From: Acidobacteriota bacterium
GTDB taxonomy: Bacteria > Acidobacteriota > Thermoanaerobaculia > Thermoanaerobaculales > Sulfomarinibacteraceae
Assembly: GCA_015493585.1 (NCBI GenBank)
Contig: WGCW01000096.1
Location: 1-33,257, forward strand
Length of the DNA: 33,257 bases
Direction: 5' to 3'
Shown here: piece after piece, positions 6,221 through 28,008 of the stretch
How the letters are laid out: every line of letters begins with the position of its first letter
How positions within the stretch are numbered: position 1 is the stretch's first letter
Notes under the pieces: model-generated
The model's input: the letters and a program-made list of their open reading frames with translations, nothing else
Told to the model about the DNA's origin: nothing
Database searches by the model: none
Translations under genes and position numbers: made by a program

Positions 6221-7390
6221 TTACCCTCCGCCGCCGAGCAACCCACGAACGGCGTCGATCACCCTCTCCACGTCGGTATCGCTCATTCGAGAGTAGATCG
6301 GCAGGCTGACAGCACGTTCATATGCCCGGGTGGCCACCGGGAACATCTCGTCTCTCAATCCGTAGCGATCACGCCAGTACGGGTGCCGGTGAAGCGGGAT
6401 GAAATGGACGCTCGTTCCGATTCCACGCTCCGACATGGCCCCGATGAAACGGTCCCGGCTCATCGGTGCTTCGTCGGTCAGACGAATGACGTAGAGGTGC
6501 CACGCGTGAACGTCCCCCTCGGGCGCATGCGCCGGGAGCTGCACGGCAAGGTCGCGAAACGCCTCGTCGTACTTCCGCGCGATCGCTTCCCGCTGCGCTC
6601 GCATCTGTTCGGCCTTTGCCAGCTGGCACAACCCGATGGCCGCTGCAAGGTCCGTCATGTTGTACTTGAACCCCGGTGCCACCACCTCGTAGTACCAGGA
6701 GGGACGCTCGCTCCGGTAGCGATCGAAGGCGTCGCGGTCGATACCGTGAAGACGCATGATCCTTGCGCGCCGGGCGATTTCAGGCCGCCGCGTCACGAGC
6801 ATGCCCCCCTCGCCCGTCGCGAGCGTCTTCGTGGCGTAGAAGCTGAACGCCGTGGCGCCACTCCCCAGGTTACCGACAAGGGCCCCGCCGGCCGTCGAAG
6901 GGAAGGCATGGGCCGCATCTTCGAGCACCTCAAGACCTCGTTCGTCAGCCAACTCCAGGATCTGCGCCATGGCACAGGCCAATCCCCCGAAATGAACCGG
7001 GATCACGGCGCGCGTCCGATCGGTGAGGACCCGCTCCACGTGCACCGCCGTGAGGTTCAAGCTCACCTCGTCCACGTCCGCGAATACCGGATCGGCCCCA
7101 AGGTACCGGACCACCTCCGCCGTCGCGGTAAAGGTGTAGACCGGAACCACCACCTGGTCTCCCGGCTCGATGCCCAAGGCCTCGAGCCCGAGATGGAGCG
7201 CCGCCGTCCCCGAATTTACCGCGACGGCTTCGACTCCCTCCCCCAGGAAATCGGCGAAGGCTTCCTCAAAGCGCCGCGTCTTGGGACCCGTCGTTAGCCA
7301 ACCGGACCGGAGGACCTCCGCAACGGCGTCGATCGCATCCTCTCCCACGTCCGGCAACGCGAAAGGGAGAAACTCGGCTGGATGTATCAC
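6221..7390 (-). CDS. DegT/DnrJ/EryC1/StrS sugar aminotransferase, copy 1
   Basis: 389 residues from the GTG at 7390. The frame runs further upstream, but the family N-terminus ([16 protein letters not shown] then [17 protein letters not shown]) begins here. GTG overlaps the stop of the preceding glycosyltransferase as GTGA and follows a GGGAGGA ribosome binding site by a few bases. The protein is a fold-type-I PLP enzyme: [15 protein letters not shown] binds phosphate, [11 protein letters not shown] holds the PLP-contacting Asp, and [15 protein letters not shown] carries the Schiff-base lysine. It should aminate a 4-keto sugar nucleotide, such as the product of the 1728-3644 dehydratase. Substrate and C3/C4 specificity are not determinable by eye. 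Confidence 0.92.
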
Positions 7391-8573: not shown

Positions 8574-9767
8574 CTACGCACCCGTGCTCCGAGCCTCTTC
8601 GGCGATTTCCAGGACCGCCTCGATCACGTCATCAACGTCGCTATCGGCCAAGGCGCTGGAAAGTGGCAGGGACACCGTCTCGTTCCCGATTCTCTCGGCG
8701 TTTGGATAGTCGCCATTTTTGTACCCGAACGTTTTCCTGTAAAACTTGTGTAGGTGGACAGGCAGGAAGTGCACGCCCGACCCAATGTTGCGTTCTTTCA
8801 GGGCCCGGACGAATTCCCAGCGTCCGATCCCAAGTTTCTCCTCATTGATCCGAATCGTGTAGAGGTGCCTGCCATGCCGACAACGGTGATCGTTCTCGGA
8901 GCTATCCGCAAACGGCGGGGGGGTTGTGATTCCGGCAACTCCGCACAGGGCGTTGTCGTATTTTTTCCAGATCTCTCTCCGGCGTGCAAGGTTTTCTTCG
9001 ATCCTAGCGAGCTGATGTAGACCCATCGCGGCCTGAAGATCGGTCATGTTCATCTTGTATCCTGCTGCCACGACATCGTAGGACCGGAATCCCTTGTCTG
9101 AGTACCGATCCCAGGCATCCTTTGTGAGGCCATGAAGCCTCATGACCCGGACCTTCTCAGCCACCTTGGCGTCGCCGGTGGTCAGCATTCCGCCCTCGCC
9201 AGTGACGAGGTTCTTCGTTACGTAGAAACTGAAGGCCGTCACATCGCCGATCGTGCCAATTTTCCGACCCTGATCCCAAGCTTCGATCGCATGGGCAGCA
9301 TCCTCAACGATATGGAGATCGTGACGCCTGGCGAGATCCAACAGGTGCCTCATGGCGACGGGCCGCCCATAGAGGTGCACAGGGATGATGGCTCGTGTGC
9401 GCCGGGTGATAGCGCCCTCTACGCGGTTGAGGTCTATCAGGCCAGTGCGGGGATCCACATCCACGAAGACCGGTTTGGCTCCCCGATGAACGATGACGTT
9501 TGCGGTCGCGCAAAAGGTCATGGGCGTGGTGATGACCTCGTCACCGGGCCCTATTCCGAACACCTCAAGCGCGAGTTCCAGACCCGCCGTGCAAGAGCTC
9601 AGAGCAACGGCGTGCTTGGCGCCGATGTATTCTGCGAACGCGGCTTCAAACTTTTCGGTTCGCGGACCTGTTCCAATCCAGCCCGACCGTAGGGTCGCGA
9701 CCACCTCCTCGATCTCCGCATCGCGGATATCGGGGGCACCAAAAACCAGGAATGTGTCCCGATCCAT
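8574..9767 (-). CDS. DegT/DnrJ/EryC1/StrS sugar aminotransferase, copy 2
   Basis: 397 residues from ATG 9767, one base after the upstream stop (TGA-A-ATG), with GGGGAG upstream. The frame extends to 9839, but those residues lie inside the previous gene. The N-terminus FGAPDIRDAEIEEVVATLR, the block SGWIGTGPRTEKFEAAFAEY, IVEDAAHAIEAWD, and the PLP lysine in FSFYVTKNLVTGEGG define the family. Layout is close to ArnB/PglE-type 4-amino-sugar enzymes. It shares the MRLHG region with copy 1 but differs throughout, so this is not a recent duplication. With the dehydratase it implies one or two amino-deoxy sugars in the polymer. Confidence 0.92.
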   Translation of the reverse strand: MDRDTFLVFGAPDIRDAEIEEVVATLRSGWIGTGPRTEKFEAAFAEYIGAKHAVALSSCTAGLELALEVFGIGPGDEVITTPMTFCATANVIVHRGAKPVFVDVDPRTGLIDLNRVEGAITRRTRAIIPVHLYGRPVAMRHLLDLARRHDLHIVEDAAHAIEAWDQGRKIGTIGDVTAFSFYVTKNLVTGEGGMLTTGDAKVAEKVRVMRLHGLTKDAWDRYSDKGFRSYDVVAAGYKMNMTDLQAAMGLHQLARIEENLARRREIWKKYDNALCGVAGITTPPPFADSSENDHRCRHGRHLYTIRINEEKLGIGRWEFVRALKERNIGSGVHFLPVHLHKFYRKTFGYKNGDYPNAERIGNETVSLPLSSALADSDVDDVIEAVLEIAEEARSTGA

Positions 9768-9768
9768 T

Positions 9769-10815
9769 TCAACTCCCCACCTTTCCTGCCTCCGGGGAGC
9801 CAAGGTCCCGCCGGCGATCGCCGAGGAGCCCGAAGACAAGCTCGCGAAAGGCCTTCTCCCGGCTTCCCAGGGGAAAGTGATCCAGAATCCTCTGCCTGCA
9901 GCGCTCCTGTTCCTCCTGCCCCATTTGAAGTGCTGTGCTGACTCCGGCCGCTACCGCCTCGGGAGAATGTTCGCCTATCTGAACGCCGCAGTCGCCAATC
10001 ACTTCCGGGAGAGAACCCACTCCTGAAAAAACAGGGATACACCGAGCGAGCATGGCCTCGGCGACCGCAAGCCCAAAGCCCTCATGCCGTGACACCTGGG
10101 CATACACCGAACATCGGGCCATCAATGCGTCAAGATCCCTCCTTGGCAACCAACCTGTAACCAGAAGGTTTTCAGCACCCGTGCTTCGCAATTCGACTTC
10201 ACTGCCGTCAAGGGTCTTGCCCGCGACGATGAACCGTATATCTGGGACCAAGCGCGATGCCTGCGCAAAGATTCGGAGACCTTTCCGTTCCAGATTGGAA
10301 CGGGAAACGTTTCCTACCGTGAGGACATCCCTCACCTTATGGGATGGTCGTGCCCAGATCTGACTATCCGGCACGCCGAGATAAACGACAATCACGTTGG
10401 AATGGTGAATATCAGCGTTGCGAACCACCTCATCCGCGCTGTATTTCGAGAAAGCTGCCACCACTGTGGCACTATTGAGAACCTTGCGGCTGACCCATTT
10501 TCTGAGGCCCCCACGCTGGTGCCCATAACCGATTCCGGGCACATCTGCGACGTCGTAGCCGCCGCTGATCACAACCACCGGCTTCCTAAGAGCCCTCCCG
10601 AGCAGGGATGGTAGAAAGCTGTGCCACGAGGCAAACCAACAGACGACAAGGTCACAACCAGCCACCGCTCGGAACGTCCTGAGGCATTCCGGGCGCCGGT
10701 TGGTGAGGCCGAGCTCCGTCACATCCGCAAACCGGGAGAAAATCTCCAGATCCAGTTCGACAAACCGGCTCCTGTGATTGTGAACCAACGTGATTCGGGG
10801 CTTCACCTCTCTCAT
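9769..10815 (-). CDS. GT4 glycosyltransferase
   Basis: 348 residues, GT-B fold, glycosyltransferase family 4. The C-terminal donor domain has LTVGNVSRSNLERKGL near residue 170 and an intact EX7E motif in RHEGFGLAVAEAMLAR near 265, followed by GSLPEVIGDCG. The N-terminal half is short and diverged (ITLVHNHRSRFVELDLEIF). It acts at the cytoplasmic side of the membrane, adding one sugar to the lipid-linked repeat unit. Its ATG overlaps the preceding stop as ATGA, and the next gene starts one base after its stop. Donor and acceptor unknown. Confidence 0.88.
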   Translation of the reverse strand: MREVKPRITLVHNHRSRFVELDLEIFSRFADVTELGLTNRRPECLRTFRAVAGCDLVVCWFASWHSFLPSLLGRALRKPVVVISGGYDVADVPGIGYGHQRGGLRKWVSRKVLNSATVVAAFSKYSADEVVRNADIHHSNVIVVYLGVPDSQIWARPSHKVRDVLTVGNVSRSNLERKGLRIFAQASRLVPDIRFIVAGKTLDGSEVELRSTGAENLLVTGWLPRRDLDALMARCSVYAQVSRHEGFGLAVAEAMLARCIPVFSGVGSLPEVIGDCGVQIGEHSPEAVAAGVSTALQMGQEEQERCRQRILDHFPLGSREKAFRELVFGLLGDRRRDLGSPEAGKVGS

Positions 10816-12083
10816 GCCCTCCTGGCCCCGTCTTCTGCAGGCCTTTCAGCCCTCCGCGCTCTTTCTGAAGAATCTCGAATGACGCTTCGGAGAATGCCCT
10901 CGATTCGATCCACATGACCAGAAATGTTGAACTGTTCTTCCGCAAGGGCTCGGGCGGCTCGCCCCATCTCCTGCCGGCGTTCGGGAGACACAATCAGTTG
11001 GGAAATCGCCTCAGCCAGTACGCCAACGGCCCCGCATGGCACAAGCGACGCGCAGTGCTGCCCACCCAGGATTTCGTCGGTTCCATCGATCGAATAGGCA
11101 ATAACTGGCAGCCCCACGGCCAACGCAGAAAGGAGCGAGAGGGGGCTGGTGTCCTTCGTCAATGATGTGTAGGCGAAGACATCGAAGGCGCTGAGCACGT
11201 TGGGGAGATCCGTTCTGTATCCCGCGAAAACGACCCGATCCTCGATTCCATGAGATGTTACAAGCTGCCTCAGTTTCTTCTCAAAACGATCGTTGTCGAA
11301 AACCGGACTACCCACAAGAACGAGCCACACCCCTTCATTGTCTTCCAATCGGGCGAAAGCTCGAATGAGGTGGTCCTGGCCCTTCCAAGGCGTCAGCCTG
11401 GCCACGTTGCCGATCACCACAGCGTCACCCGGGATTCCGAGTTCTTTCCGAAACGACGAACCATCACCCGGCCTGCTGAACTCGTCGAGCTCAACACTAT
11501 TGAGCACGACCGAGCATTTGGTTTGAATTGTGCGCGGGAAAGCCGCACGAATTGCTCGGCCATCACAAACGATATGGTCGGCGAGTCGTTCTGCGAGCCA
11601 ATTCAAGGTTCCCTGATAGCAGCCCAGAACACCGGGAGAAACCAGATCCTGGAGATGCCAGACCACCGGAATACCGGCCTTTCTTGCGGCGGCAGCCGCA
11701 AATACATGGGCCGTGATCCCTTTGGTGATGACGACATCGGTTTTGTTGTTCGCCAAGAAACTTCGCAGTCGCCGACTCCAGGACCAACCACTGCCAAGAT
11801 TGGAACACCATGCAAGCGCGTTCGGGAACTTTGCCCCGTTGATTCGGATGCTGACGCTTCGCAATGTAGAGAGCCCAACGACACTGGTACGCAACCCAGC
11901 AACATTGCACCGGTCGATGAGCGGTCCGTCCTCCGGACAAACTACCTGGACGCGCCAGCCTCGGCGCGCAAGCTCCCCGGCCACTGTAAGTGTGCTGTGC
12001 TCCACGCCACCAAGCCGGGCTGCCGACTCCACGAGGGTCACACTGAGCGGACCCGGGCCGTGAGGTGCCGGTTCAGGAACCAT
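10812..12083 (-). CDS. GT4 glycosyltransferase with a degenerate EX7E motif
   Basis: 423 residues from ATG 12083. The longer frame to 12197 belongs to the previous gene, and AGGGGG sits just before this ATG. The start lies 11 bases inside the previous gene. The family 4 layout is clear: ARLGGVEHSTLTVAGELARRG at the N-terminus, VVWHLQDL mid-protein, IGNVARLTPWKGQDHLIRAF near residue 245. Where family members carry E-x7-E, this one reads DTSPLSLLSALAVGLPVIA, so both glutamates are replaced (Asp or Thr, and Ser). The flanking pattern is otherwise normal. It may use a different donor geometry or be weak; it is not obviously truncated. Confidence 0.85.
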   Translation of the reverse strand: MVPEPAPHGPGPLSVTLVESAARLGGVEHSTLTVAGELARRGWRVQVVCPEDGPLIDRCNVAGLRTSVVGLSTLRSVSIRINGAKFPNALAWCSNLGSGWSWSRRLRSFLANNKTDVVITKGITAHVFAAAAARKAGIPVVWHLQDLVSPGVLGCYQGTLNWLAERLADHIVCDGRAIRAAFPRTIQTKCSVVLNSVELDEFSRPGDGSSFRKELGIPGDAVVIGNVARLTPWKGQDHLIRAFARLEDNEGVWLVLVGSPVFDNDRFEKKLRQLVTSHGIEDRVVFAGYRTDLPNVLSAFDVFAYTSLTKDTSPLSLLSALAVGLPVIAYSIDGTDEILGGQHCASLVPCGAVGVLAEAISQLIVSPERRQEMGRAARALAEEQFNISGHVDRIEGILRSVIRDSSERARRAERPAEDGARRA

Positions 12084-22646: not shown

Positions 22647-22925
22647 TCAGAGGTCATCGGGCCAGGTCCGGGCGGCGTGGAGAACGCGGAGAATCTGTAC
22701 GTCGTCTCCCTTGACACGGTAGGCGACGATGTAGCTTGACACGACCAACTCTCTGGTTCCGGGAACTCTCCCCGGCCGTCCTGACGAGGGAACCGCTGCC
22801 AGCCGTTCGACGGCATCAAGCACCTTCTCCGCTTCCTGTGCCGAAGCGGCGGGGTTGTCCTGAGCGATGAAGTCAACGATTGCTTCCAGATCATCAACGG
22901 CCAGTGAGAGCCAGAGGACCCTCAC
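22647..22925 (-). CDS. ParE/RelE-family toxin
   Basis: 92 residues. The ParE pattern is clear: WLSLAVDDLEAIVDFIAQDN at the N-terminus, AVPSSGRPGRVPGTRELVV in the middle and YIVAYRVKGDDVQILRVLHA at the end, with the terminal arginine-tryptophan strand usual for gyrase-targeting ParE proteins. The start is GTG 22925, overlapping the antitoxin stop as GTGA, so translation is coupled. All core elements are present and it looks intact. Whether it acts on DNA gyrase or on mRNA cannot be told from sequence. Confidence 0.88.
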   Translation of the reverse strand: MRVLWLSLAVDDLEAIVDFIAQDNPAASAQEAEKVLDAVERLAAVPSSGRPGRVPGTRELVVSSYIVAYRVKGDDVQILRVLHAARTWPDDL

Positions 22926-23191
22926 CTGGCTTTCTTTCCGGCGGTGGTCCTGACGTCCTTCTCGAACCGCACGCGCAGTTCCTCATGTCCGGTGAATTCG
23001 GCGTCCGGGCGATCGGCTGCCTCAACGGCCTCCTCGATGGCCCTGACCTGCCATTCCTGAGCGTCGAGATATTCCTCGATGGCTCGACTCGCTAGGTAGG
23101 CCTTGGTGCGGTCCATTGCAGCGGCCAGTTTCTCCAGGCGGCCCTTAACGTCCACGGGGAGTCTGATGGTCAAGGTCGTGGTTTTCGGCAT
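22922..23191 (-). CDS. CopG/RHH-type antitoxin
   Basis: 89 residues from ATG 23191, with a perfect AGGAGGT site eight bases upstream. The longer frame to 23413 runs through repeats and is rejected. The N-terminal TTTLTIRLPVDVKGRLEKLA is a ribbon-helix-helix DNA-binding domain. The middle AYLASRAIEEYLDAQEWQVR is a helical linker, and the charged C-terminus should wrap the ParE partner. The upstream region holds three phased ACACAG boxes, the likely autoregulatory operator. Confidence 0.88.
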   Translation of the reverse strand: MPKTTTLTIRLPVDVKGRLEKLAAAMDRTKAYLASRAIEEYLDAQEWQVRAIEEAVEAADRPDAEFTGHEELRVRFEKDVRTTAGKKAR

Positions 23192-23207
23192 GGTGCGCAC
23201 CTCCTGT

Positions 23208-23233
23208 ACACAGTGTAACACAGGATAACACAG
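23208..23233 (-). promoter_or_regulatory. Three ACACAG boxes phased at 10 bp, probable RHH operator
   Basis: ACACAG occurs at 23208, 23218 and 23228 on the plus strand (CTGTGT on the minus), each exactly ten bases from the next. The array ends just before the ribosome binding site of the antitoxin. Ribbon-helix-helix dimers bind short tandem sites about one helical turn apart, so cooperative autorepression is the natural reading. The -10 and -35 are not clear. Confidence 0.55.
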
Positions 23234-23721
23234 CCGCTGCGCGCGGAGGTTTCTCGCGGAGATTGCGGAGTACGTGGAGGAAGAAGCGCCGGTTGCCCCC
23301 GCCCAGATTCTTCGTCGGCTTCGCCTCCTCAGAATGACAATGGGAGGGATGCTCAGAATGACATCTTCTCTTGTCTTCCTGAGCCGAAGGCGAAGGATCT
23401 CGTCTCCTCTCAACTAACAGCAATTGCATCATCCGGGGGAAAGGCGCGTAACGTACTGATAACACGCAACGTCGAAACCCTACCCGAATGCCTGTTGGTC
23501 CAGCGTCCCGGTGCCCCGCACTGGGGCATGTCGGTGCTCAGGATGACGCCTCCCCCTGTCATCCTGAGTGGCGTGCCGAAGGCAGGCCACGAAGGATCTC
23601 GCTGCCTCAGAATGACGCCCTTTCCCGTCATCCTGAGCTGCCAGGCGAAGGATCCCATTCCCCGGAATCACGCTCGTCCCTGTCATCCACCGGTCGCGGC
23701 AAGATGCTGGGGGCGTAAAGG
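23233..23721. repeat. Composite repeat block: family B, family A and a unique core
   Basis: A 489-base gene-free stretch. It contains a family B half (23233-23292), a family A left end (CCCAGATTCTTCGTCGG near 23301) with several CAGAATGAC/GTCATCCTGAG modules, and a roughly 140-base unique core at 23404-23547 (CTCAACTAACAGCA ... TACTGATAAC ... CCGAATGCCTGTT ... GGTGCCCCGCACTGGGGCAT). More family A modules follow to about 23665. The core recurs at 28693-28849 with the same flanks. Frames through it are not believable genes. Confidence 0.75.
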
Positions 23722-24348
23722 TCAGCGAAGGATTGCATCGACCCAGCTTTCGAGGTCGGCCTTGACCCGGTTCCAACTGACGTCCGCGAGTAGCCGGAGC
23801 GGTGGTTCGTGTTCGGCATCGTCGAAGAAGATCAGGCTGCGAAGGACGTGGCCGGGATCGGCACCGTATTTCTTCTCATACAGAGCGAGGTACTCTTCGA
23901 GGCGCCTGTGCCGGGTGACAAGCACCCAGAGATCCACGAAGTCCTTGCGGCTCCCCCGGGAGGCCACGGCGGCGAGCTTCATGGCGGCGATGTCATCGAG
24001 GGAAGCCAACGGGACGCTGGTCCCTCCCGGTTGGAGCAGTGGCTCAAGGAGACCGTACGAAGAGCCGATGAAACTGACCCGGATGCCGCCGATGCTCACG
24101 TAGAGCGTCTCGGGCGCCGTTGAGACGATCGTCATCCCTCCGGCGATGCGTCTCAAGCGGCCCGCCAGAACCAGGGGGTCGCCGATCGACGGAGCGAACA
24201 GATCGAGGTCGGCTGAAAGACGGTGGGCTTCGAGCAGCGCCAGTGCGGTACCGCCCGCCAGGTAGAACCCTTCGTCCGCGAGAAAGGAGGGAAGGGCCTC
24301 GTACGCTTCCCTGACGCCAGGCGGTGTGGCTTCCCAGTGGAGGTTCAT
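23722..24348 (-). CDS. AbiEii/AbiGii-like nucleotidyltransferase toxin
   Basis: 208 residues from ATG 24348. It shares one base with the stop of the upstream gene (TGATG) and is preceded by GGAAAG. Residues about 32-50 read LAGGTALALLEAHRLSADLD: GGTAL plus S-x-D-x-D is the catalytic motif of the AbiEii/MenT-type DNA-polymerase-beta fold. KLAAVASRGSRKDFVDLWVL near 130 is the second conserved block (K, R, K-D, D). Family members act as toxins of type IV-like or AbiE systems by transferring nucleotides to tRNA. The protein is near the small end of the family. It looks intact. Confidence 0.82.
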   Translation of the reverse strand: MNLHWEATPPGVREAYEALPSFLADEGFYLAGGTALALLEAHRLSADLDLFAPSIGDPLVLAGRLRRIAGGMTIVSTAPETLYVSIGGIRVSFIGSSYGLLEPLLQPGGTSVPLASLDDIAAMKLAAVASRGSRKDFVDLWVLVTRHRRLEEYLALYEKKYGADPGHVLRSLIFFDDAEHEPPLRLLADVSWNRVKADLESWVDAILR

Positions 24349-24650
24349 CAATGCCACGATCTTTCCCGGCCCCGCGCGTTTCGGACCCACTCCCTGGTCG
24401 TGGATTCCTCGATGCCGGCCATGTGGCACCAGAAGCGCAACTCGCGCGGGGGAAGCACTCGCTGCCCACGGCTCTCAAGGTAGGCGGCGAGGCGGGCGCG
24501 GTTGACCGCCCGGAGGAGCCAACGCATTTCGGAGACCCCGCCGGCGGACATCACGCGCTCCAGGAGCGTGTCCGGGAGCTCCGTGCCGTTCTGAAGCACC
24601 GCCCCGTCGTACTCCCACATCAGACGAAGAACCTGTTCCGGAATCTTCAT
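24348..24650 (-). CDS. DUF6922-like partner (probable antitoxin) of the nucleotidyltransferase
   Basis: 100 residues. The core LLERVMSAGGVSEMRWLLRA, then AAYLESRGQRVLPPRELRFW, looks like the DUF6922 domain (hydrophobic -ERVL-YG-...-RWL- followed by RxLsPRxxxFW) that commonly precedes AbiEii-type nucleotidyltransferases. The assignment is from memory and moderately secure. The gene pair shares one base, so expression is coupled. ATG 24650 sits exactly where transcription should start from the TATAAT at 24657-24662, so this gene is probably translated from a leaderless mRNA. Confidence 0.65.
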   Translation of the reverse strand: MKIPEQVLRLMWEYDGAVLQNGTELPDTLLERVMSAGGVSEMRWLLRAVNRARLAAYLESRGQRVLPPRELRFWCHMAGIEESTTREWVRNARGRERSWH

Positions 24651-24656
24651 AACTAC

Positions 24657-24665
24657 ATTATATCA
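24657..24665 (-). promoter_or_regulatory. Extended -10 promoter, leaderless, for the DUF6922-AbiEii pair
   Basis: On the minus strand TGATATAAT is a perfect extended -10 (TGn plus TATAAT, 24662-24657). Seven bases after its last T is the A of ATG 24650. No -35 match is seen, as expected for an extended -10, and no Shine-Dalgarno fits between the box and the start codon. Confidence 0.6.
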
Positions 24666-24876
24666 CAGTATCTTGAATTGCTGTATGGCTCGGGTAAGGC
24701 GAAACCGGGAACGGAGTAATCGTCGTTGAACATGCGAAGGCCGGTTTCATCCTATTGCTTCGGCGTGCTCTGCGTGCTCTGCGAGAGGCTCTCTTCTCCC
24801 CATCGCCACTGATTGGCCACCCGCCCGAGAATTCCTCTCACTGAGAGTGCAGAGAGCACTGGGAAAAGAGATCCGT
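24666..24876. repeat. Spacer with a family B repeat half
   Basis: About 24763-24803 carries GCGTGCTCTGCGAGAGGCTC plus TCTTCTCCCC, the right half of family B. The remaining bases hold no gene. A 27-base text including GTTGAACATGCGAAGGCC near 24725 reappears near 25513, showing that the spacers of neighbouring TA modules share sequence beyond the repeats. Confidence 0.6.
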
Positions 24877-25137
24877 TCAGACGTCATGATAGTGGGTTCG
24901 CGCCCGGAGGATGTAGACCGTTTGATCCTCCTCATCGATCCGGTAAACGATGCGGTCCCGGTAGGTCAGACGTACGGACCAGTACCCCGCCAGGTCTCCG
25001 ACCAGCCGCTTCCCAGAGGTTGGGTTTTCTGCAATCCGATGGATAAGGATATCCCGAAGCTTGCGACGGAGCTTTGGAGTCAATTGCTCGATATCCTTCC
25101 GGGCTCGCCGCGTGATTCGGATGGTGTAGGGAGGCAT
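24877..25137 (-). CDS. yoeB: YoeB-type toxin
   Basis: 86 residues, beginning directly after the antitoxin stop (TGA-ATG). IRITRRARKDIEQLTPKLRR forms the RelE-fold N-terminus. GDLAGYWSVRLTYRDRIVYR is the YoeB signature (GDLxGYWSxRI..xxHRxVY), and the C-terminus RARTHYHDV provides the His of the catalytic end region. YoeB is a ribosome-dependent mRNA endonuclease. The operator upstream of the antitoxin, with paired TGTACA boxes, independently supports the YefM-YoeB assignment. Confidence 0.85.
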   Translation of the reverse strand: MPPYTIRITRRARKDIEQLTPKLRRKLRDILIHRIAENPTSGKRLVGDLAGYWSVRLTYRDRIVYRIDEEDQTVYILRARTHYHDV

Positions 25138-25395
25138 TCAGATATTTTCGAACGCCTCATCGATGGAGAGAGTGTGCCCGGCCTCGATCTCATCCTCGGC
25201 CTCGCGAAGGCTCTCGCGGAGCCCGGGAACGCTCAGCAACTCGAGGGTCTCCATCAGGTTCTCATAGTCTTCTTCGGACAACAGCACGACGGCGCCGTCA
25301 CGGTGCGTGATCCTGACAGCCTCGTGGGACTGCCGTGCCCTCCGGATCAGGGTAAAAAGCTCTTTCCGCGCCTCAGTAGCTGTGATCCCAGTCAT
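25138..25395 (-). CDS. yefM: YefM/Phd-type antitoxin
   Basis: 85 residues from ATG 25395; the longer frame to 25434 would run through the operator and is rejected. GITATEARKELFTLIRRARQ and EAVRITHRDGAVVLLSEEDY match the Phd/YefM DNA-binding and dimerisation domain. The C-terminal third is acidic (LREAEDEIEAGHTLSIDEAF) and should wrap the toxin. The leader is short (about 13 bases from the predicted start site) and the ribosome binding site is poor (GGGGGT within a GGGGTACCCC palindrome). Confidence 0.88.
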   Translation of the reverse strand: MTGITATEARKELFTLIRRARQSHEAVRITHRDGAVVLLSEEDYENLMETLELLSVPGLRESLREAEDEIEAGHTLSIDEAFENI

Positions 25396-25414
25396 CGGGG
25401 TACCCCCAAGGTTA

Positions 25415-25443
25415 ATGTACATGTTTCTGTACATTCCGTCAAG
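25415..25443 (-). promoter_or_regulatory. yefM-yoeB promoter covered by two TGTACA operator boxes
   Basis: AATGTACA (25415-25422) and TGTACATT (25429-25436) form a perfect inverted repeat with six bases between arms. The two TGTACA cores are 12 bases centre to centre, the geometry known for the E. coli yefM-yoeB operator. On the minus strand TTGACG (25443-25438), a 17-base spacer and TACATT (25420-25415) make a plausible -35/-10 pair. The operator therefore fills the promoter spacer and overlaps the -10. Confidence 0.72.
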
Positions 25444-25694
25444 AGGATGTCACCGTTCAATGTGGTTGCGCTGCGCCCCCGGACGTATCCATCCTGGGAC
25501 GCGCTGGTCGTTGTTGAACATGCGAAGGCCGGTTTCATCCCCGTACCTCTGCGTTGTCTGCGCGCTCTGCGAGAAGCTCTTTTCTCCCCCACCCACCCGG
25601 TTTCTCGCCGGGAACGCGGGGAACGGGGAGGAAGAGAAGTCTTTTGGGCCCCCACCCGGCCCGGGTAAGCGAGGCAGCGCGAGCACCGGTCGCG
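25444..25694. repeat. Spacer with both halves of family B
   Basis: From about 25545 a family B right half (CTGCGTTGTCTGCGCGCTC, then TGCGAGAAGCTCTTTTCTCC) runs into a left half (CCGGTTTCTCGCCGGGAACG ... GGGGAGGAAGAGAAG) ending near 25660. The two halves are inverted relatives of each other. No gene is supported. Confidence 0.65.
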
Positions 25695-25919
25695 TCAACG
25701 GAGAAGAGCGAGGAACTCGTCGACTGAAAGTCCAGCGGCCCGGATGAGCGCTCGAAGGGTTCCGATGGAAAGTTCCTTGTGTTGCGGTATCGAAAGGTTG
25801 ACTCGTACGCCTTCCTTGACCAGTACCAAGTGGCTGCCGACCTGGCCAATCGCAACCCATCCGGCCTTCTCGAAGGCTTTTGCCGCCGCCTTGCCCGAAA
25901 TGTTCGCCAGTCGTGCCAT
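25695..25919 (-). CDS. hicA: HicA toxin
   Basis: 74 residues from ATG 25919, two bases after the hicB stop; the frame open to 26003 overlaps hicB and is not used. ISGKAAAKAFEKAGW, then GSHLVLVKEG with the catalytic histidine in GSH, and LSIPQHKELSIGTLRALIRA match the double-stranded-RNA-binding-like HicA mRNA interferase. Gene order is antitoxin first, as in part of the HicBA class. It looks intact. Confidence 0.9.
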   Translation of the reverse strand: MARLANISGKAAAKAFEKAGWVAIGQVGSHLVLVKEGVRVNLSIPQHKELSIGTLRALIRAAGLSVDEFLALLR

Positions 25920-25921
25920 CC

Positions 25922-26137
25922 TTAGACGGCCACGACGATCGAAGGTGAACCAGAGTTCTCTGAACCCGAAGCCAAGGCCTTCTGGTCCTCCGCCCAGAGC
26001 CATGCGGTGATGGCTTCCTTGACGTTTTCAAGGGCTTCCTTCTCATCCTTACCCTGGGAGACGCAGCCGGGAAGCGCCGGAACCTCGGCCACCACCCAAC
26101 CATCCTCAGCCCTTTCCAACGTTACGTGAAATAACAT
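25922..26137 (-). CDS. hicB: HicB antitoxin
   Basis: 71 residues. LERAEDGWVVAEVPALPGCV followed by SQGKDEKEALENVKEAITAW is the HicB partial RNase-H-like fold. No helix-turn-helix or RHH tail is obvious after residue 50, so DNA binding may be weak or lie in the short C-terminus. ATG 26137 has AAGGAG eight bases upstream. A consensus promoter lies at 26195-26223. Confidence 0.9.
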   Translation of the reverse strand: MLFHVTLERAEDGWVVAEVPALPGCVSQGKDEKEALENVKEAITAWLWAEDQKALASGSENSGSPSIVVAV

Positions 26138-26166
26138 CTTTGTCTCCTTGTTCTCTTCGCCTCACC

Positions 26167-26223
26167 GCGATGATCGCAATCTCATCGCCTAACAATCATA
26201 TTTGTCGAAGTTTGCATGGTCAA
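26167..26223 (-). promoter_or_regulatory. hicBA promoter and inverted-repeat operator
   Basis: TTGACC (26223-26218), exactly 17 bases, then TATGAT (26200-26195): five of six matches in each hexamer on the minus strand. The start site is predicted near 26188. GCGATGA / TCATCGC (26167-26173 and 26182-26188) is a perfect seven-base inverted repeat beginning at that start site and is a likely operator. The leader is about 51 bases. Confidence 0.65.
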
Positions 26224-26504
26224 GCCGTATGGATTAGGGAGGTTAGCAAGGAGTCGCGTCTCCTCTCAGAATAACCTCCTCCCCTTGTCATCCTGAGTGG
26301 TGCGCCCAAGGCGCGCCACCCCTCCCTGTCATCCTGAGCCGAAGGCGAAGGATCTCGCCTCCTCAGAGTGACAGTGGAGGGTGGATTGCCGCGTCGCGGC
26401 CCTTCGGGCTGCTCCTTGCAATGACGGAGCCAGGACAGATGGTCGCGTCTGGCGTTTCGGGTCGACACACTGTTCTGTCATTGCGAGAAGCGGGGCGACG
26501 GCAG
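26224..26504. repeat. Family A modules and an inverted pair of 'TGCAATGAC' repeats (family C)
   Basis: 281 bases without a gene. About 26255-26375 holds CAGAATAAC, GTCATCCTGAG and GGTGCGCCCAAGGCGCGCC family A units. About 26381-26502 holds a different inverted pair: ATTGCCGCGTCGCGGCCC...CTTGCAATGAC facing GTCATTGCGAGAAGC...GGCGACGGCA. This second type ends three bases before the stop codon of the broken RelE toxin. Confidence 0.65.
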
Positions 26505-26771
26505 CTATTCGTATGCCTTGCTCCGGTGGCGTACCACGAGGACATGAATCAGTGGGGCTTGGTCGTCGATCCGGTAGATGACGCGGTAGTCGCCCACCCA
26601 AATCCGCCATGAGTCCCCAGACCCTGCGATCTTCCTGCAACCCGGAGGGCGAGGCTCGACGGCCAGCTCCTGGATCTTCGAGACAACTCTGCGAACAACC
26701 GTGGTTTCGAGGGATTCAATCTCTTTTCTTGCCGTACGGGCGAAGATGATTCAATAGGCCTTCTCAGGCAT
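26505..26771 (-). pseudogene. RelE-family toxin broken by a TGA at codon 7
   Basis: From ATG 26771, inside the antitoxin's last codons, the frame reads MPEKAY, then TGA (26753-26751). It then runs open to TAG 26505-26507 as IIFARTARKEIESLETTVVR, followed by GSGDSWRIWVGDYRVIYRID and VLVVRHRSKAYE. The downstream part is a complete RelE toxin of normal length (88 codons in total). Family members often read -YWIIF/-YxIxF at this point, and TGG to TGA is a single change. No ATG, GTG or TTG in frame restores the N-terminus. UGA is an ordinary stop in many genes here, so readthrough is unlikely. The antitoxin is intact. Inactivation of the toxin, or a sequencing error, explains it. Confidence 0.82.
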
Positions 26772-26955
26772 CCAGCTTGCCCTGAGCTTTAAGACGCTGG
26801 ACGACGTCTTCAAACGACTCAGTGGGTTCGTTGCGCCGATGCTCTATGAGGTACGAGTCATACACATTCTCCCAGAGCTCAGCATGCGTGGACAGGTCAA
26901 TCACCACTGCGGTCAGGTGGCCGCTGTCGTCAACAACGTATTGGATGCCCTTCAT
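26764..26955 (-). CDS. RelB-like small antitoxin
   Basis: 63 residues. The start IQYVVDDSGHLTAVVIDLST, followed by ELWENVYDSYLIEHRR and ending VVQRLKAQGKLDA, matches the small antitoxins (xYVVDExGxxTAVVIxxxxWE) that pair with RelE toxins. ATG 26955 has GAAGGGGG about nine bases upstream. Its last eight bases overlap the start of the toxin frame. With the toxin broken, the gene may persist as an orphan antitoxin. Confidence 0.75.
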   Translation of the reverse strand: MKGIQYVVDDSGHLTAVVIDLSTHAELWENVYDSYLIEHRRNEPTESFEDVVQRLKAQGKLDA

Positions 26956-27000
26956 CGTTTGGCCCCCTTCCGCCCGTCACTGGGAGATCTGTCAGGCCTT

Positions 27001-27028
27001 ATTATACTCCGCACGGCTTCTTCGTCAG
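27001..27028 (-). promoter_or_regulatory. Promoter of the relB-like gene
   Basis: TATAAT on the minus strand (27006-27001) with CTGACG (27028-27023) sixteen bases upstream. The start site falls near 26994, giving a leader of about 39 bases with a ribosome binding site. So the promoter of the broken module is still well formed. Confidence 0.55.
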
Positions 27029-27330
27029 CCTCACTGCGCCAAGCGACCAGTGACTCAAGTCCGTGCGGGCTCCCCTCGTCTTCACCTCTCCACCTCAGAT
27101 CGGTGCTAGGACCGGAACTTCTCACAGCTTTGTATTTCACTGTTCGTTGCCACTCAACCGAGGCGCTTCCGGCCACCGCCCACCCGCCCAAGAAGGTCTC
27201 TCGCAGGGAACGAGGGCAACGCGGAGGAAGAAGAGGAATCTATTCAGTTCCCCCACCCGCCTAAGATTATCTCTCGCGGGGATCGCGGGGCTCGCGGAAG
27301 AAGAGAAGACTAAAGTCCGCACGTAGTTTC
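27029..27330. repeat. 302-base spacer with family B left halves
   Basis: Two family B left halves in tandem: CACCCGCCCAAGAAGGTCTC ... GCGGAGGAAGAAGAGG (27179-27238) and CACCCGCCTAAGATTATCTC ... GCGGAAGAAGAGAAG (27251-27308). The part from 27029 to 27175 has an open minus-strand frame of low credibility and no recognisable gene. Confidence 0.6.
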
Positions 27331-27741
27331 TCAGGGGAGCAGGTCTTCCGGCTGCGTTATGAGTCCTAGGCCTTCGACGCTCTCGAAATGGCGATCGTAG
27401 GAGAAGACGGGCAAACCACTCTGAAGAGCTGTGGCGGCGATCCAGAGGTCGTTGGCCGGAATCGGGCGGCCCAATCGCCGGAGATTCGCATAGATTCGTC
27501 CGTACCATGAAGCGGTGGTGGAATCCACCGTCGCCACCTGTACCCGTGGGGAGTCCAGAAAGGCCGTCAGCTCCCTCCGATTTTCCGTTTCCCGAGCTCC
27601 GAAGGCGAAGCCAGCCAGGAGCTCGCCCAATACGATCACCGGAATCACGATCGTTTCGGCAAGCTGCAGCATCTCCACAGCCTGTTGCCGTCCACGCTTG
27701 AACGCTACGTATGCGTTGGTATCGAGGATGAGGCCACTCAT
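27331..27741 (-). CDS. VapC/FitB-type PIN-domain toxin
   Basis: 136 residues from ATG 27741, which overlaps the antitoxin stop as ATGA; a GTG two codons earlier is possible. The PIN acidic set is complete: Asp in LILDTNAYVAF, Glu in IVLGELLAGF, Asp in IPANDLWIAATAL and Asp in VFSYDRHFESV. These coordinate the metal of an RNase, typically cutting tRNA or rRNA. The C-terminus (EGLGLITQPEDLLP) is standard. No damage seen. Confidence 0.92.
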   Translation of the reverse strand: MSGLILDTNAYVAFKRGRQQAVEMLQLAETIVIPVIVLGELLAGFAFGARETENRRELTAFLDSPRVQVATVDSTTASWYGRIYANLRRLGRPIPANDLWIAATALQSGLPVFSYDRHFESVEGLGLITQPEDLLP

Positions 27742-27995
27742 TCCCACATGCCCGGGTCAATCTGTTCTGTCTCCTCCAGAGCTGCCAAAACCGCCTGCGC
27801 TTCTTCTTCGGTCCATGTTCCCGCCAGCTCATCCAGGTCGTGGTGTCGGGGGTGCCATGGACGGCGCGCAAGGCCTGCGCCTTCCCGTACGAGCCGGAGA
27901 AGGAACGCGTTGAGTGAAACGCCCTCTCGCCGCGCCTCCTCCCGAAGGCGTTCAGCTTCTTCTTCTTTCAGCCCTCGAAGCGTCATCGTAGGCAT
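27738..27995 (-). CDS. FitA-like RHH antitoxin of the VapC module
   Basis: 85 residues. MPTMTLRGLKEEEAERLREE, then GVSLNAFLLRLVREGAG, is a FitA-type ribbon-helix-helix domain (MTLRxLxxxxxxxLRxxAxxxGxSLNxFL). A Trp-rich C-terminal tail (HDLDELAGTWTEEEAQAVLA) would block the toxin. ATG 27995 has AGGAGGT seven bases upstream. The upstream operator is described at 28009-28026. Confidence 0.88.
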   Translation of the reverse strand: MPTMTLRGLKEEEAERLREEARREGVSLNAFLLRLVREGAGLARRPWHPRHHDLDELAGTWTEEEAQAVLAALEETEQIDPGMWE

Positions 27996-28008
27996 GATGC
28001 ACCTCCTG

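What the first reader, a model, noticed from the sequence alone, without database searches (positions are those of the whole stretch)
26505..26771. RelE toxin killed by a single TGA at codon 7 while its antitoxin and promoter stay intact
The frame MPEKAY-TGA-IIFARTARKEIESL continues as a complete RelE toxin. It sits exactly where the toxin should start, overlapping the end of an intact RelB-like antitoxin. One base (TGG to TGA) would restore it. All other TA modules here look whole, so this is either recent loss of toxicity leaving an orphan antitoxin, or a sequence error. The tidy promoter at 27001-27028 argues that decay is young.
Basis: partly seen in the sequence, partly recalled or inferred. 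Interest (0 to 1): 0.7.

Follow-up and report, generated by a model that had tools for sequence, protein, structure and literature searches.

The report
Freshly broken toxin beside intact antitoxin
A bacterial growth-stopping toxin gene has been switched off by a stop signal after six amino acids while the antidote gene beside it is intact, an ordinary kind of decay that turns out to recur often and independently in this one toxin-antidote family but not in its closest sister family.

Summary
Confirmed: window 26771-26505 (- strand) reads as a complete RelE/ParE-fold toxin (Pfam PF05016, 1.9e-11) stopped by TGA at codon 7, overlapping by 8 nt an intact 63-aa RelB-like antitoxin (26955-26764). 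No usable start lies just after the stop. The "TGG to TGA" detail is not supported: relatives have many residues there, never Trp.

The nearest orthologue (same family, other genus, 78% DNA identity over exactly the two genes) also has an intact antitoxin and a dead toxin, but its stops are at codons 16 and 58. The toxin frame is still as constrained as the antitoxin (dN/dS 0.11 and 0.10). So these are two independent, recent losses.

Across the phylum, 70 loci with this antitoxin intact have a toxin that is intact in 37, broken in 20 and undetectable in 13. A sister RelE family with ribbon-helix-helix antitoxins has 28 of 30 intact and none broken. Genome-wide sequencing error cannot explain that difference; an error at this single base cannot be excluded without reads.

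Selenocysteine recoding is unlikely, although the genome has tRNA-Sec. Best reading: a decaying type II module that leaves an orphan antitoxin. The kind is known; the family-specific excess of toxin loss is modestly new.

The parts
26764..26955 (-). RelB-like antitoxin, 63 aa, intact ATG-to-TGA frame
   Evidence: weak PF18506 RelB-like (0.0038, below cut-off; 6 of 7 family members hit the same model, best 1.4e-5); predicted fold is a beta-hairpin plus two helices, mean pLDDT 90, no ribbon-helix-helix or helix-turn-helix
26505..26771 (-). relE-family toxin pseudogene, 88 codons plus stop, conserved positions kept
   Evidence: (PF05016 1.9e-11)
26751..26753 (-). in-frame TGA at codon 7 that ends toxin translation after six residues
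   Evidence: sense codon in the G013 orthologue
26764..26771 (-). 8-nt overlap of antitoxin end and toxin start, as in translationally coupled antitoxin-toxin pairs
27001..27028 (-). sigma-70-like promoter match (CTGACG, 16 nt, TATAAT) upstream of the antitoxin; not conserved in the orthologue
   Evidence: flank comparison

Best explanation
This is a chromosomal type II toxin-antitoxin module of the RelBE kind whose toxin gene is a young pseudogene. Shown by sequence: the antitoxin frame is open, the toxin frame is complete except for a TGA at codon 7, and in relatives the same toxin is broken at different places while the antitoxin stays open. Inferred: translation of the toxin ends after six residues, so no RNase is made; the antitoxin is still expressed and remains as an orphan. 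Loss of the toxin is tolerated because the antitoxin is present, whereas loss of the antitoxin first would be lethal, so decay runs in one direction. The family is passed around horizontally (the shared DNA is exactly the two genes, presence is sporadic) and its toxin is lost repeatedly. Whether the orphan antitoxin is kept because it neutralises incoming related toxins (anti-addiction) or is only on its way out is not settled here.
For: Frame and domains. Independent losses: the G013 orthologue has an intact antitoxin and toxin stops at codons 16 (TAA) and 58 (TGA), with a sense codon at 7. Recency: dN/dS toxin 0.113, antitoxin 0.099; 41 of 66 toxin differences at third positions against 22 expected. 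Family pattern: first survey 10 intact, 11 broken, 4 absent; separate survey 27 intact, 9 broken, 9 absent. Control: RHH-RelE sister family 28 of 30 intact, 0 broken, Fisher 1.2e-5 for the first survey, 0.0037 for the second. One direction: in the toxin-profile search every intact family toxin had an intact antitoxin upstream, apart from one cut by a contig end. Mobility: flanks unrelated, 6 of 41 genomes in one genus, absent from the same-genus genome. Precedent: decay of ccdO157 in E. coli, cited in PMC2654758 and PMC7167474.
Against: No reads, so the single base is unverified. The low dN/dS is also what would be seen if the product were still made by readthrough. The genomes are draft assemblies, and some frameshifts in the survey may be errors. 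Surveyed loci are not independent in ancestry. The control covers the best-scoring hits of its family.
Confidence: 0.85

Rival explanations
1. Sequencing, assembly or strain-mixture error at 26751-26753; the toxin is intact in the cell.
For: Draft assembly of 194 contigs; a single substitution in an otherwise perfect frame; no reads available.
Against: The orthologue is broken elsewhere in the same gene, and 20 of 57 family toxins with remnants or intact frames are broken, while none is broken in the sister family taken largely from the same kind of draft genomes, including an intact copy in this genome. That makes a real lesion here the more likely reading but does not prove this base.
Confidence: 0.08
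2. The TGA is recoded (selenocysteine or regulated readthrough), keeping the toxin at very low level.
For: The genome has a good tRNA-Sec (75.9 bits against a gathering score of 47). The frame is as constrained as the antitoxin. A small hairpin follows the codon (-6 to -9 kcal/mol).
Against: Homologues never have Cys at this place. Lesions elsewhere in the family include TAA, TAG and frameshifts. The hairpin loop begins 12 nt after the TGA, nearer than bacterial SECIS loops usually lie (own knowledge), and the hairpin follows from the A-R-x-A-R codons. No Rfam match. TGA ends the overlapping antitoxin gene, so TGA is not sense throughout.
Confidence: 0.03
3. The antitoxin is kept by selection as a stand-alone immunity (anti-addiction) gene, and that is why toxin loss is so common in this family. 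(An addition to the best explanation rather than an alternative to the pseudogene itself.)
For: 13 of 70 loci keep an intact antitoxin with no toxin detectable. RelE toxins 38-49% identical to a family member occur on plasmids and phages. Anti-addiction is demonstrated for ccd (PMC2654758).
Against: No measured constraint on an antitoxin after its toxin was lost: synonymous sites are saturated in the testable genus. The antitoxin itself is almost absent from plasmids. Simple one-way decay gives the same picture.
Confidence: 0.25

Closest known systems
RelBE type II toxin-antitoxin systems (RelE/ParE superfamily, PF05016)
   Same: Toxin fold, antitoxin-then-toxin order, short overlap, size
   Different: Toxin frame stopped at codon 7; the antitoxin is below the Pfam RelB-like cut-off and the model shows no DNA-binding domain
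Decaying ccdO157 system of Escherichia coli (Mine et al. 2009, read here only through reviews PMC2654758 and PMC7167474)
   Same: Chromosomal type II module degenerating, part of a decay that the reviews describe as deletion and nonsense mutation
   Different: CcdB rather than RelE; within one species, whereas here the losses are spread over many genera of one phylum
Orphan antitoxins of E. coli and Klebsiella (PMC10790755; Klebsiella work as described in PMC7354431)
   Same: Intact antitoxins without a working toxin, many judged remnants of degraded systems
   Different: Those are pooled counts; here one family is compared with a sister family that shows no broken toxins
RHH-antitoxin RelE modules (G000 contig C192 copy, control family of this study)
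   Same: Same toxin superfamily (43% identity) in the same genome and phylum; the antitoxin tails align with the RelB-like profile, columns 27-61
   Different: Antitoxin has a ribbon-helix-helix domain; toxin almost always intact

Membership tests
RelBE-type II toxin-antitoxin module | Toxin of the RelE/ParE superfamily | tested here: met
   PF05016 1.9e-11 over the full profile, read through the stop; PDB RelE chains; TIGR02385 sub-threshold
RelBE-type II toxin-antitoxin module | Small antitoxin gene directly upstream, overlapping or adjacent | tested here: met
   26955-26764, 8-nt overlap
RelBE-type II toxin-antitoxin module | Antitoxin recognised as RelB family | tested here: inconclusive
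   PF18506 0.0038 for the window's protein, 1.4e-5 at best in the family, below the curated cut-off for the window's protein; no PDB match
RelBE-type II toxin-antitoxin module | Functional toxin that cleaves mRNA and is neutralised by the antitoxin | tested here: not met
   Toxin frame closed at codon 7 with no nearby start; activity of intact relatives not testable with these tools. Filed therefore as a decayed module, not as a working RelBE system.
Pseudogene with surviving antitoxin (orphan antitoxin) | Disabled toxin frame next to open antitoxin frame | tested here: met
Pseudogene with surviving antitoxin (orphan antitoxin) | Intact toxin in relatives | tested here: met
   37 of 70 loci intact
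Selenoprotein | Sec-to-Cys correspondence in homologues and SECIS element at the usual distance | tested here: not met
   No Cys at this position; hairpin too near and explained by coding; no Rfam match
Selenoprotein | Selenocysteine machinery in the genome | tested here: met
   tRNA-Sec 75.9 bits at G000:C69:10357-10451; selA and selB not searched

The most novel reading that the evidence does not exclude
The RelB-like antitoxin of this family, which in the model has no DNA-binding domain, is itself the selected part: an immunity gene against related RelE toxins on mobile elements, so that the cognate toxin is repeatedly discarded while the antitoxin is kept, unlike the sister family whose antitoxin is a ribbon-helix-helix protein.
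Probability: 0.2. Interest if true: 0.55.

Novelty: new member of a known kind. Interest (0 to 1): 0.38.

Why it matters
Toxin-antitoxin decay has usually been described system by system or as pooled orphan counts. Here a single-base lesion leads to a family in which about a third of detectable toxins are dead (20 of 57) next to open antitoxins, with a sister toxin family of the same phylum showing none. That makes a standing question testable: is the antitoxin merely the last part to go, or is it kept as immunity, and does having a DNA-binding antitoxin protect a module from decay?

Tried and rejected
Trp at codon 7: rejected by alignment. The promoter as evidence of youth: not conserved in the orthologue. 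Restart just after the stop: no start codon in frame. Selenocysteine: tRNA-Sec present, other criteria fail. Clustering of lesions near the start of the toxin: striking in the first survey (mean codon 19, chance 0.0003) but absent in the second (mean 41, chance 0.34), and biased because only the first lesion is scored, so dropped. Antitoxin constraint after toxin loss: synonymous sites saturated. Antitoxin in viral contigs and plasmids: none in viral contigs, one weak plasmid hit. Genome-collection scan with the toxin gave one distant locus. Structure search of the antitoxin model: nothing significant.

Full report
Observation. The minus strand from 26771 to 26505 reads MPEKAY, TGA, then an uninterrupted frame to a TAG. 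Read with X at the stop it is a complete RelE/ParE-fold protein (PF05016, 1.9e-11, full profile; solved RelE relatives), with the positions conserved among relatives kept. The 63-aa antitoxin frame before it (26955-26764) is open and overlaps the toxin start by 8 nt. No ATG, GTG or TTG follows the stop in frame near the start of the fold.

Genome and relatives. The window is the whole of contig 96 in a 3.1-Mb, 194-contig draft genome that is 99.6% complete. The only other genome of its genus among those searched has neither gene. The closest copy is in another genus of the same family (G013): 78% DNA identity over 451 nt that are exactly the two genes, with unrelated flanks on both sides. Its antitoxin is open, and its toxin has TAA at codon 16 and TGA at codon 58, with an Arg codon at position 7. 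The lesions are not shared, so the two toxins died independently.

Age. Between these two copies dN/dS is 0.11 for the toxin frame and 0.10 for the antitoxin; pN/pS intervals overlap (0.13-0.31 and 0.08-0.29). Of 66 toxin differences 41 are at third positions against 22 expected at random. Most of the divergence therefore happened while the toxin frame was under selection, and both deaths are late on their branches. The same numbers would be seen if the frame were still translated, which is why recoding had to be considered.

Recoding. The genome does have tRNA-Sec. Against selenocysteine: no homologue has Cys at codon 7, the lesions elsewhere in the family are TAA, TAG, TGA and frameshifts, the hairpin after the TGA is too near and follows from the codons for A-R-x-A-R, and Rfam finds nothing.

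Family survey. A profile of the antitoxin was run over the class and phylum. For each locus with a full, open antitoxin the next 450 nt were scored with a RelE profile in all three frames. First set, 25 loci: toxin intact 10, broken 11, not detectable 4. One of the 11 (G379, only the first codons left) was called broken by eye where the script's score fell just under its threshold. Second set, mostly new genomes from another class (extra regions), 45 further loci: intact 27, broken 9, not detectable 9. Together 37, 20 and 13.

Control. The sister RelE family, whose antitoxins are ribbon-helix-helix proteins, was searched by its antitoxin in the same 396 phylum genomes. Of 30 classified loci 28 have an intact toxin, none is broken, 2 have none detectable; the remaining full-length hits also have stop-free toxin matches, read from that table and not classified. 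Broken against intact: Fisher 1.2e-5 for the first set, 0.0037 for the second against the 28 classified controls, 1.6e-6 combined against 45. In the toxin-profile search, in-frame stops occur in 4 of 16 family hits and 3 of roughly 115 others (Fisher about 0.004). Sequencing error should strike both families alike and so cannot be the general cause. Limits: loci share ancestry, genomes are drafts, the control takes top-scoring hits, and the second set has no control from exactly the same genomes.

Direction of loss. In the same toxin-profile search, intact toxins of this family always have an open antitoxin upstream (one is cut by a contig end). No intact family toxin with a broken antitoxin was seen, as expected if antitoxin loss is lethal.

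The antitoxin. It is below the Pfam cut-off for RelB-like. Its predicted fold is a beta-hairpin and two helices with high local confidence (pLDDT 90, pTM 0.46) and matches no solved structure. Its C-terminal columns 27-61 align with the tails of the RHH antitoxins, which suggests a shared toxin-binding tail on a different N-terminus. That it lacks a DNA-binding domain is inferred from the model only.

Verdict. A real and ordinary event, a young toxin pseudogene with an orphan antitoxin, of the kind known from ccdO157 and from orphan-antitoxin surveys. What is added is the family-specific, repeated and recent loss with an internal control. A base error at this one site stays possible without reads.

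Noticed in passing
window 22647-28000, minus strand: An island of small modules in one orientation: ParE-type toxin with its partner (22647-23413), a gene that looks like an AbiEii-type nucleotidyltransferase (23722-24429, by eye), YoeB/YefM (24877-25434), HicAB (25695-26137), the broken RelBE, and VapBC (27331-27995), separated by dispersed repeats, beside a polysaccharide-type gene cluster.
   Followed up: partly
L141 (G013:C101) 9049-9148, 10099-10198, 10693-10749, 11495-11594: A 57-85 nt repeat lies just upstream of each small two-gene module; the core is a palindromic repeat found about 16-31 times per genome in that genus, but the long form with an extended -10-like stretch and ribosome-binding site was seen only in this array. 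The last copy also carries the first codons (MKGIQ) of the RelB-like antitoxin, followed by another gene.
   Followed up: partly
L141 (G013:C101) 10184-11345 and window 24877-26955: Both broken RelBE pairs sit upstream of a YefM/YoeB pair in the same orientation and next to polysaccharide genes, although the DNA between is unrelated.
   Followed up: partly
G000:C69:10357-10451 (L106): A strong tRNA-Sec (75.9 bits), so this organism probably makes selenoproteins.
   Followed up: no
window 7124-7222, minus strand: ARAGORN reports a tRNA-Ser (CGA) inside the conserved part of a DegT-like aminotransferase frame; probably a false positive.
   Followed up: no
L038 (G047:C6:146308-149493), around 1501-2010: A third in-class example with an open RelB-like antitoxin and a RelE remnant split over three frames, an older stage of the same decay.
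   Followed up: yes
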